From NCBI RefSeq assembly GCF_000243215.1, contig NZ_JH594596.1:1243305-1307304 (forward strand): a DNA stretch of 64,000 nt, read 5' to 3'. Shown here in pieces: positions 1 through 8,058 of the stretch (position 1 is its first letter; every line of letters starts with the position of its first letter). The position numbers and the translations under genes are program-made. The DNA comes from Odoribacter laneus YIT 12061. Lineage in GTDB: Bacteria > Bacteroidota > Bacteroidia > Bacteroidales > Marinifilaceae. The notes under the pieces are model-generated. The model worked only from the letters and a program-made list of their open reading frames with translations, was not told where the DNA came from and did not search any database.

Positions 1-514
1 TTATTTCAGGATAAAGCTTTGTATGATCTGGCACGCAACACTTCCCAGATCATGCAAAAACAATCCCAATACCTCAGTATTACACAGGAAGAAAATAAAC
101 GCCTTTACGAACAGTTGCAACAACTCCTGCAAGCCAGTCAAACAACCAATGAAAATCTCACGACCCTGCTCGAAAAAGGAGTCAGTAACGGAGAAAACCG
201 TTCTCTCAGCGAACCGCCTACACCGGTAATGAAAGAAATCCTGCAGCAATTAATTGCCATCAAAGAGAATATTCACAAAACCGGGACGATACTCCACCCC
301 GACGGAACCGTACAGGCAACGGAATTATTTCAGGATAAGGCTTTGTATGATCTGGCACGCAACACTTCCCAGATCATGCAAAAACAATCTCAATATTTAA
401 GTATTTCCCAGGAAGAAAACCGACGCTTATACGAACGGCTAGAGACCTTGTTAACGGTGACAGAAGCTACCAATAAAAACCTCGAAACACTTTTAGAAAA
501 AGGTATTAACCGTG
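1..514 (+). repeat. 324-bp-period tandem repeat inside the coiled-coil gene
   Basis: Bases 1 to about 190 recur at 325 to about 514. The first ~72 bases of the copies differ at only about four positions; identity then decays gradually at both DNA and protein level. The period of 324 nt is exactly 108 codons, so the duplication keeps the frame. More copies may lie upstream of the window. Confidence 0.85.
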
Positions 515-723
515 GAAATAAAAAAATTACAGCACAGGTGGACGAACTTTCCCAGCTCGTAAAATCTACCGGGGAACAGGTTACGGTTCAAATTAAACAG
601 ATAAACGAAAAACGGGCCAAAGAAGCCAAAGAATTAATGCAATTCACCCAAACCCTGCAAAATATCATAAAAAAACTCAACCAAAGCCACAATGCTCTAT
701 ACAAATCACCTGAAGAACAATAA
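1..723 (+). CDS. Coiled-coil tail of a ZorA/MotA-like or related protein (5' truncated)
   Basis: The frame is open from the first base, so the gene begins before the window and only the last 240 residues are visible. They are hydrophilic, rich in Gln, Glu, Lys and Asn, and look helical or coiled-coil throughout. There is no membrane segment or catalytic motif here. A block of about 62 residues starting LFQDKALYDLARNTSQIMQ occurs twice, 108 codons apart. The stop lies 22 nt before a MotB/OmpA-like gene on the same strand, so the two are probably co-transcribed. In stator pairs such as MotA-MotB, TolQ-TolR and ZorA-ZorB the channel subunit precedes the OmpA partner, and ZorA carries a long cytoplasmic helical tail. 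Calling this ZorA-like rests on that context alone, because the diagnostic membrane domain is outside the window. Confidence 0.5.
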   Translation, partial: LFQDKALYDLARNTSQIMQKQSQYLSITQEENKRLYEQLQQLLQASQTTNENLTTLLEKGVSNGENRSLSEPPTPVMKEILQQLIAIKENIHKTGTILHPDGTVQATELFQDKALYDLARNTSQIMQKQSQYLSISQEENRRLYERLETLLTVTEATNKNLETLLEKGINRGNKKITAQVDELSQLVKSTGEQVTVQIKQINEKRAKEAKELMQFTQTLQNIIKKLNQSHNALYKSPEEQ

Positions 724-745
724 AAATCATCAAAATTTGTAAGCC

Positions 746-1447
746 ATGAACTCCTTTCAGAACAATGAAGAATCTTCTTGGGCAGTCGTTGCCGGAGTCA
801 CATTCGTGCTTATGCTAATTTTTTTATTTATCTCCGTTGGATATATGTCCAACGCCATACAGGATAAAAATAAAATTACAGCAGTTGCCAATAGTTATGA
901 AAAAATTCAGGTCGAGCTGACAAACGACTTACGGGAAGAGTTTTCAGAAAATTTAAAAGAATGGAATGCCAGTTTTGATCCTTCCAATCTTTCCATCCGA
1001 TTCGAATATCCAGAAATTTTATTCAAAGTGGGAAGTGCCGAATTGAACGATAAATTCAAAAACATTCTAACCAGTTTTTTCCCTCGCTTTCTACAAATCA
1101 TAAACGATCCTAAATATAAAAACGATATCGAGGAAATCCGGATTGAAGGGCACACTTCCAGTGAGTGGGAAGGAGAATCCTCTCCCCGACAGGCTTATTT
1201 TAAGAATATGGAACTTTCACAGAACCGGACCCGGAATGTGTTGGAATATCTGCTTTCGAATATCCAGGATGAAGACCTGTTCAATTGGACTAAAAAATAT
1301 GTGACAGCCAATGGGCTCTCTTCCAGCAAACCGATTTTAAACCCTGATGGACAAGAGGATAAAATTCATTCCCGACGCGTAGAATTCCGTATCAAAACCA
1401 ATGCAGAAAAGCAAATTATTAAAATTATTGAACAAACACATCAGTAG
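746..1447 (+). CDS. MotB/ZorB-like OmpA-domain membrane protein
   Basis: This 233-residue protein has one N-terminal membrane helix (about residues 12-33) after a short cytoplasmic tail, a helical linker, and a C-terminal OmpA-like peptidoglycan-binding domain (about 85-220). The OmpA signature is the Gly-His-Thr at 135-137, the N-x-x-L-S-x-x-R motif at 154-161, and the terminal RRVEFRI strand. This layout matches MotB, TolR-like and ZorB stator subunits, which anchor a proton- or sodium-driven motor to peptidoglycan. MotB and ZorB carry an ion-binding Asp a few residues after the helix-start Trp; here the aligned position (about 17) is Gly and the helix has no acidic residue. It sits 22 nt after the coiled-coil gene and 2 nt before the acyltransferase. 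A generic OmpA-family anchor is the alternative. Confidence 0.65.
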   Translation: MNSFQNNEESSWAVVAGVTFVLMLIFLFISVGYMSNAIQDKNKITAVANSYEKIQVELTNDLREEFSENLKEWNASFDPSNLSIRFEYPEILFKVGSAELNDKFKNILTSFFPRFLQIINDPKYKNDIEEIRIEGHTSSEWEGESSPRQAYFKNMELSQNRTRNVLEYLLSNIQDEDLFNWTKKYVTANGLSSSKPILNPDGQEDKIHSRRVEFRIKTNAEKQIIKIIEQTHQ

Positions 1448-1449
1448 CC

Positions 1450-2073
1450 ATGCTTGTCCGTTTAAAAGAAAAAATTAAAAATAACCCTCCGTTAAAAACC
1501 TTTATCCACCGTCTGTTGGTTCATCCTATTAAAACACGCCCTCGTTTCTGGTTACGGTGCTGCCGTTTTTTGTATATCAAACGGGGCAAGGGCACTGTCA
1601 TCTACCGGAATACGCGCAAAGATATCGTTCCCTTCAACGATTTCTATTTAGGCGATCATTCTGTTATCGAAAGTTTTTCTACCCTAAACAATATGGTTGG
1701 TGAAATCCGGATTGGCTCACGTAGCCGGATTGGCTTGGGAAACACAATTATAGGTCCCGTTCACATTGGCAATGATGTCAATCTGGCCCAAGGAGTTGTC
1801 GTCTCCGGCCTCAATCACAATTATGAAGATCCATGCCAAACCATTATTTCTCAAGGAATTGTCACCTCCCTCATTACAATCGAGGATGACGTATGGGTCG
1901 GTGCTAATGCCGTCCTCCTGTCCGGCGTTACAATCGGTCACCATTCTGTCGTGGCTGGAGGAAGCATTGTCACGCATAATTTTCCTCCTTACAGTGTCGT
2001 GGCCGGCAATCCGGCCAAGGTCATCAAATATTACGACCCCCAGCAAAACAAATGGGTAAAACCAAAAGCTTAA
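1450..2073 (+). CDS. Hexapeptide-repeat (LbH) acyltransferase
   Basis: This 207-residue protein has a basic N-terminal third and then a left-handed parallel beta-helix region (about residues 75-195) with repeats such as IGSRSRIGLGNTIIGPVHIG. It ends in the family signature VVAGNPAKVIKYY. The motif GLNHNYEDP supplies the His expected as catalytic base in CAT/WbbJ/VatD-type O-acetyltransferases, which move an acetyl group from acetyl-CoA to sugars or other acceptors. Its start is 2 nt after the MotB-like stop, so it belongs to that operon, although the next genes on the opposite strand are for glycan synthesis. Its substrate cannot be read from sequence. It may acetylate a surface glycan or be an accessory of the upstream pair. 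Confidence 0.85.
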   Translation: MLVRLKEKIKNNPPLKTFIHRLLVHPIKTRPRFWLRCCRFLYIKRGKGTVIYRNTRKDIVPFNDFYLGDHSVIESFSTLNNMVGEIRIGSRSRIGLGNTIIGPVHIGNDVNLAQGVVVSGLNHNYEDPCQTIISQGIVTSLITIEDDVWVGANAVLLSGVTIGHHSVVAGGSIVTHNFPPYSVVAGNPAKVIKYYDPQQNKWVKPKA

Positions 2074-2084
2074 AGACTTTCTGT

Positions 2085-3014
2085 TCACCCTTTTTTCAAT
2101 TGCTTAAAAAGAAATAGAGCAAAATTCCGGAATCGTATCTGTTTTACATATCTTTTCCGAAAACAGAATAACAAAAAAATCATCTTTTCCTGAAAGGATA
2201 AAGGCCATGCTATACTTAAAAACGCATTTAAAGTGATAGCCCGATGCTTATCTATCAAAGCTTTGATATCATCTTTCTGAGTCAAGGCAAATAAAGACAA
2301 TTGCTCAAAAACAGTTTGATAACCGATACGATTTTTTCGGCTTATCTTTTTAGTCATTGTCGAAGCAGGACGAATACGACGTCTAAAAAATGAATTCTTG
2401 ATATATCCCATTTGGATAGCATGGAGATAGACCATTACTGTAAACAATTGATCCTCATGTATAATACCACTGTAAAAAACAGGGCTCCATCGTTTTAATA
2501 AAGAAGCACGCAGCAACAACATACAGGGAGAAACACAAAATTGATTTGTATCCAACAAAAAATTCATCAATTCTATTCCCCCGTATACCCGGTCTTCCAA
2601 ATCCTTATAATGATAATTAAAAGAAAAACGGGTTTCCTTGTCTTCGGTCAGCACCTCAGCTTCAAATATAACGGCATTCAAATCTTCCTCTTCGCACTTA
2701 CGGTAACAACATTCTAAAGCATCAGCAGCTAATACATCATCACTATCCATAAAATAAACATATTTGCCTGTGATATATCGAAGACCTATATTACGAGCAA
2801 CAGCTTGTCCCTCATTCGAGGCTTGCTTATAAAATTTTATACGGGAATCAGTTGAAGCCAATTGTGAGACGATTTCGCAACTATTGTCAGTCGACCCGTC
2901 ATCCACAACAATAATTTCGATATCACGCAAAGTCTGATTTAGAATGCTATTCAATGCTTCTGCCACATATAATCCGGTATTATATACCGGCATAACTACA
3001 CTCACCTTCGTCAT
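2085..3014 (-). CDS. Family 2 glycosyltransferase
   Basis: A GT-A fold glycosyltransferase of 309 residues. The N-terminus VSVVMPVYNTGLYVAEALNS is the classic GT2 nucleotide-binding start, VVDDGSTDNS follows at about 37-45, and the metal-binding D-S-D-D motif is at residues 90-93. The C-terminal third is basic and partly hydrophobic, typical of enzymes that work on lipid-linked acceptors at the inner face of the membrane. It is the last gene of a minus-strand trio, 10 nt after the pyruvyltransferase. It most likely adds one sugar to a capsule or O-antigen-like repeat unit; donor and acceptor are unknown. Confidence 0.9.
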   Translation of the reverse strand: MTKVSVVMPVYNTGLYVAEALNSILNQTLRDIEIIVVDDGSTDNSCEIVSQLASTDSRIKFYKQASNEGQAVARNIGLRYITGKYVYFMDSDDVLAADALECCYRKCEEEDLNAVIFEAEVLTEDKETRFSFNYHYKDLEDRVYGGIELMNFLLDTNQFCVSPCMLLLRASLLKRWSPVFYSGIIHEDQLFTVMVYLHAIQMGYIKNSFFRRRIRPASTMTKKISRKNRIGYQTVFEQLSLFALTQKDDIKALIDKHRAITLNAFLSIAWPLSFQEKMIFLLFCFRKRYVKQIRFRNFALFLFKQLKKG

Positions 3015-3024
3015 CTCAAAAATT

Positions 3025-3906
3025 TCAAAAAGGACAAACAGCCAACAATTTCTCGGAATCGAACAAAATGGGAGACCAGTTTTTACGGAATTCCAATAAT
3101 TCTTCCAAAGGATAAAAACGTTCTAACTTTATTGGCTTACTCCTCTCCTTTCCTACAGAAAGATAATAATCATTAAACTTAAAACTTTTATCGATATCGT
3201 CGCTAAACTCTACCCAACAATTGGGAATGCCGTAAGCATCAGAAAGAATAATTCCATGTAAAGAGCTGGATAATATAAATTCACATTCATTTACCCGATC
3301 GATAAAGGAAGACCAGCTCCCATAATTCTGGATATCGAACACATATACTTCCTTCATTTTTCTGTAATTATCCAGCCAAGTTTTCGCTTTATCGCAATAA
3401 TGAGGAATAATCCCCAATTTATATTTCTTTTCCACTAAAGGTTTATAAAATCTGGGAAACAATAAAGCCGGATCACCGTAAATTTCAGGACAGTCAACCC
3501 CTTGTTCCAATAAAAATTTTCTCGTCAATGGTCCCCGGACAGCACATACCTTCATGGGCTTTTCCTGCAACTTCATCTTCGGCGAAATAGCCCCGCTTCC
3601 CCAAATTATTCCTTGTTTATTACTCAATTGGGCCACAATACTTCCAATACATAAATAATTTATCCGCTTTCCCGAGAAAAGGGTAAAACGCCTCGGTACA
3701 ACTTTTTTACCGGAAATGAGTTCCGGAAGAATGAGATTTACATCGTCTCCCCAATTATAACGTCCCAACAACGACTGAGGAGGACACCAAAAATGGACCA
3801 ATACAATATTTTTACAAAATAAATCCCGACAGGTATATTTCCCTATATATAAAGGATTCGCAAACAAGCGTTTATAAACTTTAAATAGAATAGCTGCTAC
3901 CTTCAT
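3025..3906 (-). CDS. Polysaccharide pyruvyl transferase family protein
   Basis: This 293-residue protein matches the polysaccharide pyruvyl transferase family (CsaB/WcaK/EpsO type). Visible landmarks are NWGDDVN near residue 52, the WGSGAISP segment, AVRGPLTRKFLLEQGV followed by YGDPALLFP in the middle, and the SSSLHGIILSDAYGIP motif toward the C-terminus with the conserved S-x-H-G. Such enzymes move pyruvate from phosphoenolpyruvate to a sugar as a ketal, adding negative charge to exopolysaccharide or cell-wall glycan. Its start overlaps the flippase stop by 4 nt (ATGA), so the two are translationally coupled. Pyruvylation of the glycan exported by that flippase is a reasonable inference. 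Confidence 0.85.
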   Translation of the reverse strand: MKVAAILFKVYKRLFANPLYIGKYTCRDLFCKNIVLVHFWCPPQSLLGRYNWGDDVNLILPELISGKKVVPRRFTLFSGKRINYLCIGSIVAQLSNKQGIIWGSGAISPKMKLQEKPMKVCAVRGPLTRKFLLEQGVDCPEIYGDPALLFPRFYKPLVEKKYKLGIIPHYCDKAKTWLDNYRKMKEVYVFDIQNYGSWSSFIDRVNECEFILSSSLHGIILSDAYGIPNCWVEFSDDIDKSFKFNDYYLSVGKERSKPIKLERFYPLEELLEFRKNWSPILFDSEKLLAVCPF

Positions 3907-5534: not shown

Positions 5535-6650
5535 ATGAAAGCACTTTTTCTGATCTTTCACGATTTCGATCCGGCAAATGGTATCAGTAAAAAAATACAG
5601 TCACAAATCCGTGCCTTACAAGCGAACGGACTGGAAACTGATCTTTGCTATCTACAGGAGAATACTTTCGTCAAGCGCCGTATCGTAAACAATCAAGTAA
5701 TTGCCGACTACGGAACAACCCTTAAAGGAAAAATCAGGAAACGAGTGGAATACGATTCCATTACCGATTATGTCATCCGTCAGCATATAGACCTGGTCTA
5801 TATGCGTTCAAATCACAATGCTAATCCATTTACAATTCGAATGCTTCGCCGGATGAAAAAAGCAGGTACTCGTGTCGTCATGGAAATTCCCACTTATCCC
5901 TACGATCAGGAATACATCGAGCCTTTTATGAAAGCGGAATTATTTATTGACCGTTGTTTCAGGAAAAGAATGGCTCGCTTCTTAGAAGCTATTGTGACTT
6001 TTTCGGATTATAAAATTATATTCGGAGTACCTACCATACAGATTTCCAATGGCATCGATTTTGCAGAAATTCCCCTCAAAACACATCTCAACGATACAAC
6101 CCACGAACTGCACCTTATCGGGGTGGCCGAAATTCACTATTGGCACGGTTACGATCGACTCATCCGTGGACTAGCGGTATACTACGAGCATCCCCAAACT
6201 TATAAAATATATTTTCATATTGTGGGGGAAATGAGCGGCCAACGGGAACAAGACGAAATTCTGCCCCTGATCGCAACATACCATTTAGAACCCTATATCA
6301 TTTTTCACGGCAAACAATCCGGCCAAACGCTTGATCAAGTGTTCAACCAATGTGATTTCGGAATTGGCAGCCTGGGCCGACATCGTTCCGGCATCGACAA
6401 AATCAAAACCCTGAAAAACCGGGAATATGCCGCCCGTGGTATCCCTTTTATTTATTCCGAAACAGATGAAGATTTTGAGCAAATGCCTTATGTACTTAAA
6501 GCACCAGCAGACGAATCTCCTATAGACATAAAAAAAATGATAGACTTTCATTCTACTTTAGAAATGTCTCCCCAAGAAATCCGCGATTCGGTCAGTTCCC
6601 TCTCTTGGAAAGAACAGATGCGGAAAGTAATTCAACAAATCTTTACTTAA
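5535..6650 (+). CDS. Family 4-like glycosyltransferase
   Basis: This 371-residue protein has a GT-B layout. The N-terminal Rossmann half begins MKALFLIFHDFDPANGISKK, a glycine-containing first loop typical of GT4 enzymes. The C-terminal half contains LIGVAEIHYWHGYDRLIRG and the stretch IIFHGKQSGQTLDQVFNQCDFGIGSL, which aligns with the nucleotide-sugar-binding part of the fold. The usual E-x7-E motif is degenerate (KNREYAARGIPFIYSE). No membrane segment is seen, so it should act at the cytoplasmic face. Its last 8 nt overlap the 3' end of the converging lipoprotein gene. Donor and acceptor are unknown. Confidence 0.82.
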   Translation: MKALFLIFHDFDPANGISKKIQSQIRALQANGLETDLCYLQENTFVKRRIVNNQVIADYGTTLKGKIRKRVEYDSITDYVIRQHIDLVYMRSNHNANPFTIRMLRRMKKAGTRVVMEIPTYPYDQEYIEPFMKAELFIDRCFRKRMARFLEAIVTFSDYKIIFGVPTIQISNGIDFAEIPLKTHLNDTTHELHLIGVAEIHYWHGYDRLIRGLAVYYEHPQTYKIYFHIVGEMSGQREQDEILPLIATYHLEPYIIFHGKQSGQTLDQVFNQCDFGIGSLGRHRSGIDKIKTLKNREYAARGIPFIYSETDEDFEQMPYVLKAPADESPIDIKKMIDFHSTLEMSPQEIRDSVSSLSWKEQMRKVIQQIFT

Positions 6651-8058
6651 TTCGCTTTAATAAAGCTTCTTTTTGAGGAGAATTCTTTAATAATGCTGTA
6701 AAATATACCGCATCCCGGCGATTGATTTCCGTCGGAAATTTTTCATACTGCTCGACAAAATGCGTAGCATGTTCAACCAACTTTTTCCGGCAATCTATAT
6801 GAAACATCGTTCCTTGCCCATAACTCGCATAAGACAAACCTTTTACATTATCGTCGGCAGATACCGATAAAATAGCCGATTCTGGCATGCCTTCCAAGTT
6901 CAAGGTTACCGAAGGATAATAAAAATTCTCTTCTGCCGGTAGTGTAACAATTAGCTTTAAAGTATGTTCATCAACGACAACTTTTTTAATAATTCCATGT
7001 ATCCGATAATAATTGTATTCATAATACTCCTCCAAGCTGGTAAACCACAACGAATCATCTCCATCTTTTCCATATTGATCATTCAACCACAAAAAGAATT
7101 CAACCCACTCTGTACCTGTACCATGCACTCCAACACACACAGCTTCCCGCTCTTCTTTTGCTAATTTTAATTGTGATTCTATAAACTCCTTGGTAGCCGC
7201 AATCTCAGAAAAATTACGATTTAACACAACTCCCCTCAAATCCTTTTTAACTTGAAAAGGAAATAATTTCTCCGCTTGCGTTTGAGCCGTCATTATCTGT
7301 ATCGGAGCATACCTTTGAGCAGCCGTAATATAAGTCTTATTACCATTAGGTTCCGCCAGCACTTTAGATCTTCGTCCAGATAAATATTTTAAAATACTAT
7401 CCTGCGCAGAAGCATAATGTACAAGAACAGAATCTGCTACATTGACAGCTTCTGTATTAACATCATGAAAAGCGATGCCTGTTCCGTAATTTACCATTTC
7501 TCTCACATTGTCCCACACCAAACCAGATTTCATGAAAAAACGATAATAATTTTGAGAAAAACCAGATGATACAACCGTCTTGGCATTCATAAAATCCCAT
7601 TCCGGTGCTAAGGTAGTTGTAAAATTAAATCTCACTTCATTCCCAGCACCATCCGTTGAACCGAGAGTTTTTCCCAGCGTATAAACATCAGGAGGGAGAT
7701 CGTCATTCAAATATTGACGGACATCATAATAATATTTTTTAGACAATGGCCTTCCATTTAGGGCTGCCCAAGTACAACAATAAGCAGCCTGCTTACAATC
7801 GTCCTGAGATAAAATAAATAACCAGGATTTATTATATTTCAATGGAGGTATCTCAACTTTTACTTGTTCCATATTTATACCTGCCTTGGTTTGTATAACC
7901 ATTTCAACCGTTACACCCTGGTTCTCACTTGAAAAGGGATATGTATATAAAGGTTCTTCTATTACATCTTTCTTCTCCTGATATAAATTCCTATGTTTTA
8001 AACACGAACTAAACAAGAAAACAACAACAATAAGCACAAGTATCTGAAACTTTTTCAT
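6643..8058 (-). CDS. Lipoprotein with polysaccharide-deacetylase-like features
   Basis: This 471-residue protein begins with a lipoprotein signal ending LFSSC, Cys19 being the lipidation site, so it is exported and membrane-anchored. Several blocks look like degenerate NodB (carbohydrate esterase 4) motifs: ILSQDDC at about 82-88 in place of TFDDG, GIAFHDVNTE with His198 in place of the HTxxH motif, LAEPNGN at about 234-240 resembling the RxPYG block, and a late VHGTGTEW containing His312. The family match is my reading of spaced motifs, not a clear full-length assignment. Its position among glycosyltransferases supports a role in trimming or modifying a surface glycan. It may instead be an inactive or unrelated fold. 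Confidence 0.5.
   Translation of the reverse strand: MKKFQILVLIVVVFLFSSCLKHRNLYQEKKDVIEEPLYTYPFSSENQGVTVEMVIQTKAGINMEQVKVEIPPLKYNKSWLFILSQDDCKQAAYCCTWAALNGRPLSKKYYYDVRQYLNDDLPPDVYTLGKTLGSTDGAGNEVRFNFTTTLAPEWDFMNAKTVVSSGFSQNYYRFFMKSGLVWDNVREMVNYGTGIAFHDVNTEAVNVADSVLVHYASAQDSILKYLSGRRSKVLAEPNGNKTYITAAQRYAPIQIMTAQTQAEKLFPFQVKKDLRGVVLNRNFSEIAATKEFIESQLKLAKEEREAVCVGVHGTGTEWVEFFLWLNDQYGKDGDDSLWFTSLEEYYEYNYYRIHGIIKKVVVDEHTLKLIVTLPAEENFYYPSVTLNLEGMPESAILSVSADDNVKGLSYASYGQGTMFHIDCRKKLVEHATHFVEQYEKFPTEINRRDAVYFTALLKNSPQKEALLKRIK

What the first reader, a model, noticed from the sequence alone, without database searches (positions are those of the whole stretch)
1..2073. Possible ZorAB/MotAB-type stator pair with an acyltransferase in one operon
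Seen: a long coiled-coil tail, a MotB/OmpA-like single-pass protein and a hexapeptide acyltransferase lie within 24 nt of each other on one strand. Known: MotA-MotB, TolQ-TolR and ZorA-ZorB pairs share this order, and ZorA has a long helical tail. Inference: the truncated gene is the channel subunit of such a motor. The acyltransferase partner is not one I know from described Zorya types, and no ZorC, D or E follows, so this may be a variant system or a glycan-linked motor.
Basis: partly seen in the sequence, partly recalled or inferred. Interest (0 to 1): 0.6.

Follow-up and report, generated by a model that had tools for sequence, protein, structure and literature searches.

The report
Zorya-like motor in sugar-coat operon
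Two genes for an anti-phage-type membrane motor (ZorA and ZorB) sit inside an operon that builds a surface sugar polymer, without their usual DNA-cutting partner, and the copy in this genome has lost residues that such motors use to pass ions.

Summary
Gene 1, extended upstream, starts with a ZorA2-type membrane domain. Gene 2 is ZorB2-type (284 bits to PADLOC ZorB2; best solved match 8VVI, a type II ZorAB). A run of N in gene 1's repetitive tail ends just before base 1.

The pair lies in a Wzx/Wzy-type exopolysaccharide (EPS) operon. The acyltransferase belongs to that operon, not to the motor. In 5 of 56 family genomes zorA-zorB stands between a GT4 gene and the acyltransferase; ZorE nuclease was not found in those five. 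EPS-linked ZorBs form one clade (85/70) among Zorya II ZorBs. Congener G015 has the operon with only a decayed zorA start.

In the window's copy the ion-carrying Asp of ZorB (23 of 23 other rows) is Gly17, and ZorA residues Phe72, Ser75 and Gly78 (22 of 22 other rows) are changed. Peptidoglycan-binding residues are kept.

Best reading: a Zorya-type core captured once by an EPS operon as an envelope accessory, with the ion path intact in four relatives and lost here. Whether this copy is a passive scaffold or a relic is undecided. Function is inferred, not shown.

The parts
1..723 (+). 3' part of the zorA-like gene (cytoplasmic tail); the 5' part with the membrane domain lies outside the window, upstream of a 198-N run (gene start L003:12602; window position = L003 position minus 13305)
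   Evidence: PADLOC ZorA2 E 5.2e-18 for the N-terminal 166 residues
1..436 (+). repeat copies of the ZorA tail (period 324 nt = 108 aa): window 1-112 matches 325-436 at 89%; window 229-405 matches the stretch before the N run at 91%; window 1-86 is identical to the last 86 nt before the N run
   Evidence: (blastn)
746..1447 (+). zorB-like gene: one N-terminal membrane helix and a peptidoglycan-binding OmpA/MotB domain
   Evidence: PADLOC ZorB2 283.9 bits; phmmer 8vvi E 4.4e-48; Foldseek 8vvi_B E 2.5e-20 on a predicted model of mean pLDDT 81.5
794..796 (+). codon GGA = Gly17 of ZorB, at the place of the ion-carrying Asp (Asp21 of 8VVI; Asp in 23 of 23 other rows)
   Evidence: role of the Asp from PMC11890865 section 6
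1151..1159 (+). His136-Thr137-Ser138, start of the kept peptidoglycan-binding motif HTSSEW
   Evidence: peptidoglycan-binding His and Ser of ZorB II in PMC11890865
1450..2073 (+). hexapeptide acyltransferase of the EPS operon (not a motor part)
   Evidence: Hexapep 52.5 bits; present in loci without zorAB
2085..3014 (-). GT2 glycosyltransferase of the EPS region
   Evidence: PF00535 128.9 bits
3025..3906 (-). polysaccharide pyruvyl transferase of the EPS region
   Evidence: PF04230 57.2 bits
3903..5426 (-). Wzx-type flippase (Polysacc_synt)
   Evidence: PF01943 66.2 bits

Best explanation
Genes 1 and 2 encode a ZorAB-type inner-membrane complex (by homology five ZorA around two ZorB, ZorB's periplasmic domain on peptidoglycan, ZorA's helical tail as a rod in the cytoplasm). 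Its ancestor was the core of a Zorya type II-like system that lost its ZorE nuclease and was inserted once between the GT4 and acyltransferase genes of a Wzx/Wzy-type EPS operon in one bacterial family. In relatives with the ion path intact it probably turns ion flow into force or a signal at the site of EPS assembly, as an accessory and not an essential part, since the same operon exists without it. In the window's genome both subunits have lost invariant ion-path residues while peptidoglycan-binding residues and the end of the tail are kept. This copy therefore most likely can no longer run as an ion-driven motor and acts, if at all, as a passive peptidoglycan-anchored scaffold. Shown: homology, place in the operon, no ZorE found, one clade (moderate support), residue losses. 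Inferred: 5:2 assembly, loss of ion flow, any role in EPS.
For: ZorA2 and ZorB2 profile matches and solved type II ZorAB as best PDB match. The order OMP-PCP-Wzy-GT2-GT2-GT4-ZorA-ZorB-acyltransferase stands in the window's genome and G016, and with an ATP-grasp gene after zorB in G008, G009 and G010. GT4 and zorA are 11-12 nt apart in three and overlap in two of the five. ZorE: 1 of 56 family genomes, G037, whose Zorya II locus lies elsewhere; the same query finds 8 of 8 other ZorEs at E below 1e-12 in a set of nine sequences. EPS-linked ZorBs are one group in the tree, 85/70, 88% of 200 bootstrap trees. G015, same genus, keeps a decayed zorA start right after GT4: score 66 to G010 ZorA against at most 44 in 300 mononucleotide shuffles. 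ZorB Asp17: 23 of 23 others; ZorA Phe72, Ser75, Gly78: 22 of 22 others; all changed in the window's pair, while His136, Thr137, Ser158, Arg161, Arg210 and Arg211 are kept.
Against: No experiment known to me links any ZorAB to EPS. Three of the eight nearest EPS loci (G015, G006, G007) lack zorAB, so EPS synthesis does not seem to need it. No case was found outside the family: none of 29 GT4 loci looked at in the order. Clade support is moderate. The G015 remnant is clear only against G010; against the other three ZorAs 1, 2 and 4 of 300 shuffles reach its score. G016 also departs at 2 of 25 (ZorB) and 3 of 10 (ZorA) otherwise invariant columns, so the number of departures in the window's pair is not unusual; only their place is. 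ZorA Thr41, another invariant residue, is kept in the window's genome. The tail's length is unknown because of the N run.
Confidence: 0.5

Rival explanations
1. The window's copy is a relic: a Zorya-type pair in the EPS operon that is decaying in this genus and does nothing, its frames still open by chance.
For: Of the three genomes held for the genus, G015 has only a zorA remnant, G014 has no match for ZorB or the PCP at the thresholds used, and the window's copy has lost the Asp, Ser75 and the N-terminal half of the ZorB helix consensus (WMSISDLMSVLM to WAVVAGVTFVLM); the tail holds near-identical repeats.
Against: ZorB is an open frame of 233 codons with all 22 invariant columns beyond the helix kept. 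Identity beyond the helix is 70% to G010, in the range of PCP, Wzy, GT2a, GT2b and GT4 (62-76%; the acyltransferase, 43%, is left out because G010 has another version of it). The predicted fold is good. dS is saturated in most comparisons, so selection could not be measured.
Confidence: 0.33
2. A Zorya-type anti-phage defence core that lives in a surface-polysaccharide operon and works with an unlinked or unknown effector.
For: Homology to Zorya type II; ZorAB is proposed to sense envelope damage in Zorya (PMC11890865, discussion); surface polysaccharide loci are under phage selection (general knowledge, no call).
Against: ZorE found in 1 of 56 family genomes and in none of the five with the EPS-linked pair. 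No extra gene is common to the five loci beside the pair: ATP-grasp only in G008-G010. In E. coli, deletion of each Zorya II component lost protection against T7 (PMC11890865). The Asp required for defence there is lost in the window.
Confidence: 0.13
3. A flagellar, Tol-Pal or gliding stator unrelated to Zorya.
For: OmpA/MotB domain, and a MotA_ExbB signal below its cut-off.
Against: ZorB2 profile 283.9 bits against 41.2 bits for the best MotB-family model; best structure match is type II ZorAB; no flagellar or Tol genes among the neighbours scanned.
Confidence: 0.02

Closest known systems
Zorya type II core, ZorAB of Sulfuricurvum kujiense (PDB 8VVI; PMC11890865)
   Same: ZorA with membrane domain and long tail, ZorB with one membrane helix and peptidoglycan-binding domain, gene order zorA-zorB; ZorB alignable over residues 6-230 (E 4.4e-48).
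   Different: No ZorE beside it or found in the genome; placed in an EPS operon; ZorA of the four EPS-linked relatives is 275-313 aa against 388-478 aa in the complete Zorya rows and 378 aa in 8VVI; in the window Gly17 stands for Asp21 and ZorA Ile75 for the aligned Ser.
Agl-Nfs machinery of Myxococcus xanthus (PMC3858216, passages)
   Same: A MotAB-like pmf-driven motor that acts on a capsular-type surface polymer; precedent for a stator serving a polysaccharide.
   Different: AglRQS has three subunits and works with Nfs or Glt proteins; that it is encoded apart from the exo operon is recalled; descent was not tested here.
Wzx/Wzy-type exopolysaccharide operons
   Same: Polyprenyl glycosylphosphotransferase, TolC-like OMP, PCP, Wzy, GT2/GT4 transferases, acyltransferase, Wzx.
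   Different: ZorAB is not a usual member: none of the 29 homologous GT4 loci of the order that were looked at had it within 1.5 kb.

Membership tests
Zorya type II system | ZorA: MotA/TolQ-type membrane domain with long helical tail | tested here: met
   PADLOC ZorA2 E 5.2e-18 and alignment to the ZorA chain of 8VVI (E 2.6e-9); tail present but its length unknown because of the N run; NCBIfam ZorA2 53.1 bits against a cut-off of 700 on this fragment
Zorya type II system | ZorB: membrane helix plus peptidoglycan-binding domain | tested here: met
   PADLOC ZorB2 283.9 bits; fold as 8vvi; NCBIfam ZorB2 225.4 bits, below its equivalog cut-off of 400
Zorya type II system | ion-carrying Asp in the ZorB helix | tested here: not met
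   Gly17 in the window; Asp in 23 of 23 other rows, including the four other EPS-linked ones
Zorya type II system | peptidoglycan-binding residues of ZorB | tested here: met
   His136, Thr137, Ser158, Arg161, Arg210, Arg211 as in 23 of 23 others; Ser138 as in 9 of 23, the rest Asp or Asn. That Arg210 is Arg215 of the E. coli protein was not aligned here; the counterpart of its Arg230 was not determined
Zorya type II system | ZorE HNH nuclease | tested here: not met
   none of the 5 genomes with the EPS-linked pair, 1 of 56 family genomes (G037) at E 1e-5; positive control 8 of 8
Zorya type II system | protection against phages | not testable with these tools
   needs plating assays
Zorya type I system | ZorC and ZorD beside ZorAB | tested here: not met
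   neighbours are EPS genes; no genome-wide search for ZorC or ZorD was made
Wzx/Wzy exopolysaccharide operon | polyprenyl glycosylphosphotransferase, OMP, PCP, Wzy, GTs, Wzx | tested here: met
   OEP 71.1 bits and Wzy_C 46.8 bits, both above cut-off; Polysacc_synt 66.2 bits above cut-off; EPS_sugtrans 243.5 bits, below its cut-off of 295.55, and PCP only by chain-length models (E 1.8e-12, 46.2 bits, below cut-off 278.85; no Pfam Wzz match)
Agl-Nfs type polymer-moving machinery | three-subunit AglRQS motor with Nfs/Glt complex | not tested
   resemblance of role only, from passages of PMC3858216

The most novel reading that the evidence does not exclude
A phage-defence rotary core has been taken over by an EPS operon and, in this lineage, has given up ion flow altogether: ZorAB here is a static, peptidoglycan-anchored rod whose length is tuned by repeats of the ZorA tail and which organises EPS enzymes. 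To my knowledge (not searched for as such) it would be the first stator-type complex kept for its structure and not for its motor.
Probability: 0.25. Interest if true: 0.8.

Novelty: new variant of a known kind. Interest (0 to 1): 0.58.

Why it matters
Zorya cores are described as phage-defence motors that call in a nuclease. Here the same core has a second home, an EPS operon, with no nuclease found, in three genera of one family, and one lineage offers a natural version without the ion-path residues. That makes two questions testable: what ZorAB does without an effector, and which parts of it still matter when it cannot move ions. It also warns that annotation by ZorA/ZorB profiles alone would call these loci phage defence.

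Tried and rejected
Acyltransferase as motor partner: rejected, it belongs to the EPS operon, and its identity to the window's copy (G016 67%, G010 43%) runs opposite to that of ZorB (G016 54%, G010 67%).

MotAB or Tol stator: rejected on profile and fold scores.

dN/dS: dS saturated in most comparisons, no use.

Remnant of zorAB in G006 (95-nt gap between GT4 and acyltransferase): only a 26-nt match at E 0.13, not claimed.

EPS-linked ZorAB elsewhere: ZorB searches of the order (6 of 393 at E 1e-12), phylum (12 of 395 at 1e-15) and class (8 of 345 at 1e-25), own genome counted in each; in these searches only about the best 7 or 8 candidates of a genome were scored. The 20 distinct outside genomes with a match show, beside ZorB, a ZorE-like gene or part of one (16), a ZorC-like gene (2: G121, G566), or the order zorB-zorA with no ZorE in view (2: G569, G960) (HNH by a simple pattern and by eye). 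Flanks seen were 1.5 kb, so EPS genes further away would be missed.

Literature: Zorya + ZorA + ZorB + stator (1 paper, sections 6 and 10 read), ZorAB + exopolysaccharide (3, unrelated by listing), Agl motor and spore coat (5, one read in passages), Zorya + Bacteroides + capsular polysaccharide (1 review, listing only), Zorya + ZorB + peptidoglycan (4, one of them the paper, the rest listing only), MotA TolQ ExbB + exopolysaccharide + operon (1, unrelated by listing), Zorya + ExbB + TolQ + MotA + evolution (4, one read in passages). Nothing seen describes ZorAB in an EPS locus. Most subscription papers are not in the library, and Hu et al. 2025 (PMC11946911) is not held.

Full report
Observation. 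The window is G000:C1:1243305-1307304. Upstream sequence (L003; window position = L003 position minus 13305) shows gene 1 starting at L003:12602. A run of 198 N ends at the base before window base 1. The last 86 nt before it are identical to the first 86 nt of the window, and 177 nt before it match window 229-405 at 91%. I read the run as an assembly gap in a repeat with a period of 324 nt (108 aa); that it is a withheld stretch cannot be excluded. The N count does not keep the frame, so the length of gene 1 is open: an 86-nt overlap of the two sides would give 380 aa in frame, one further repeat 488 aa (arithmetic).

What the genes are. The N-terminal 166 residues of gene 1 match PADLOC ZorA2 (E 5.2e-18) and the ZorA chain of 8VVI (E 2.6e-9), while Pfam MotA_ExbB, 14.8 bits, is below its cut-off of 22.9. 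Gene 2 matches PADLOC ZorB2 with 283.9 bits and 8VVI ZorB with E 4.4e-48; NCBIfam's ZorB2 equivalog model gives 225.4 bits against a cut-off of 400. An AlphaFold2 model from three rows (mean pLDDT 81.5) has 8vvi_B as best Foldseek match, E 2.5e-20.

Surroundings. Upstream of gene 1 on the same strand lie a polyprenyl glycosylphosphotransferase, a TolC-like OMP, a 728-aa PCP, a Wzy, two GT2 and a GT4 gene (the first and the PCP only by models below their cut-offs). Downstream of the acyltransferase, on the other strand, lie a GT2, a pyruvyl transferase and a Wzx. GT4 to zorA is 12 nt, zorA to zorB 22 nt, zorB to acyltransferase 2 nt, so the pair is laid out as part of an EPS operon; transcription was not tested.

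Relatives. ZorB was sought in the 56 held genomes of the family: 8 matched at E 0.001, six of them strongly (E 2.1e-60 or better); the other two matches (G013, G025) are OmpA-type proteins of other build. Of the six, five (window, G008, G009, G010, G016) stand in the same EPS operon after GT4 and before the acyltransferase, with an ATP-grasp gene between zorB and the acyltransferase in G008-G010. The sixth, G037, is a Zorya II locus with ZorE. The PCP was found in 17 of 56 genomes at E 1e-20. Eight carry a near version (E 1.1e-144 or better); five of these have zorAB and three (G015, G006, G007) do not. Of the nine more distant PCP loci, five were fetched and showed no zorAB in the stretch taken, though the G037 contig ends before GT4; four (G049, G030, G035, G038) were not looked at. 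In the order, GT4 was found in 65 of 384 genomes at E 1e-80; of the 29 loci handed out besides the own one, none had ZorA or ZorB within 1.5 kb (tblastn E 1e-3), and in 6 the acyltransferase directly follows GT4. The other 35 genomes were not looked at. GT4 followed by the acyltransferase is thus probably the arrangement into which zorAB came.

Gain and loss. In G015, of the same genus, the 242 nt between GT4 and the acyltransferase begin with a decayed zorA start: in-frame alignment score 66 to G010 ZorA against at most 44 in 300 mononucleotide shuffles; scores to the other three ZorAs were 40-49, reached by 1, 2 and 4 of 300 shuffles. So this genus probably once had the pair and G015 lost it. 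In a tree of 23 ZorBs (one duplicate of 24 left out, two rows cut short at the N-terminus by my start choice) the five EPS-linked rows form one group, support 85/70, 88% of 200 bootstrap trees, beside the ZorBs of G037, L012, L013 and G828. The support is moderate.

No nuclease found. ZorE of G037 as query found 1 of 56 family genomes, G037 itself, at E 1e-5. In a set of nine sequences it recognises 8 of 8 other ZorEs at E below 1e-12, so a ZorE in the five genomes would probably have been seen. ZorC, ZorD, ZorF and ZorG were not sought across the genomes.

Ion path. In the alignment with 8VVI, window Gly17 stands at chain residue 21. PMC11890865 (section 6 and discussion read) names D21 of the type II structure as the critical ion-transduction residue, and reports the D24 position as crucial for defence in types I and II. 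In 23 of 23 other ZorB rows (G008/G010 and L013/G452 are near or full duplicates) the residue is Asp, also in the four other EPS-linked rows; the invariant Met two residues on is Thr19 in the window. In ZorA, Phe72, Ser75 and Gly78 are invariant in 22 of 22 others and are Ile, Ile and Ser in the window's genome; Thr41 is kept. That Ser75 lies in the ion path is inferred from its conservation in a membrane helix, not shown. Of 25 otherwise invariant ZorB columns the window departs at two, both in the helix, and at none of the 22 beyond it (Fisher p 0.01, chosen after seeing the data). Against: G016 departs as often (2 of 25 and 3 of 10), at other places and with Asp and Ser kept, and G532 departs at 4 of 27 ZorB columns. 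Peptidoglycan-binding residues are kept.

Reading. The anatomy is firm: a Zorya II-type core in an EPS operon, no effector found, one origin probable. What it does is inferred. That the operon occurs without it argues for an accessory role. Precedent for a pmf-driven stator serving a surface polymer is Agl-Nfs of Myxococcus (PMC3858216, passages), where Nfs foci are paralysed in an aglQ D28N mutant. For the window's own copy, loss of conserved residues in both partners points to a pair that no longer moves ions; passive scaffold and relic cannot be told apart here, as dS is saturated in most comparisons. Against a defence role stand the lack of a nuclease partner and the report that deletion of each Zorya II component loses protection against T7.

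Taxonomy. The two named relatives found (a Chitinivibrionia MAG and a Melioribacter MAG) are Zorya II-type loci by neighbours (ZorE-like gene whole in L012, short and without HNH in L013).

Check.

Noticed in passing
L039 (G121) and L051 (G566): ZorAB-like pairs followed by a single ZorC-like EH_Signature protein of 470-477 aa; ZorD was not seen within the 1.5 kb flank.
   Followed up: partly
L046 (G569) and L056 (G960): A ZorB-like gene stands before the ZorA-like gene, the reverse of the usual order; in G569 a weak TIR-domain gene (22.8 bits, below its cut-off of 28) lies upstream; no ZorE in view.
   Followed up: partly
window 1-436 and L003:12926-13107: 108-aa repeats in the ZorA tail, near-identical at DNA level; they may make the rod's length variable.
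   Followed up: partly
L032 (G006) 1329-3544: The PCP gene of the zorAB-free EPS operon is broken into two frames.
   Followed up: no
L041 (G109) 1134-1484, L053 (G480) 630-1486, L044/L013: ZorE-like genes that look short or split beside open ZorB frames.
   Followed up: no
window 6643-8058: Putative polysaccharide deacetylase (PF15421, 867.7 bits) near the EPS region.
   Followed up: no
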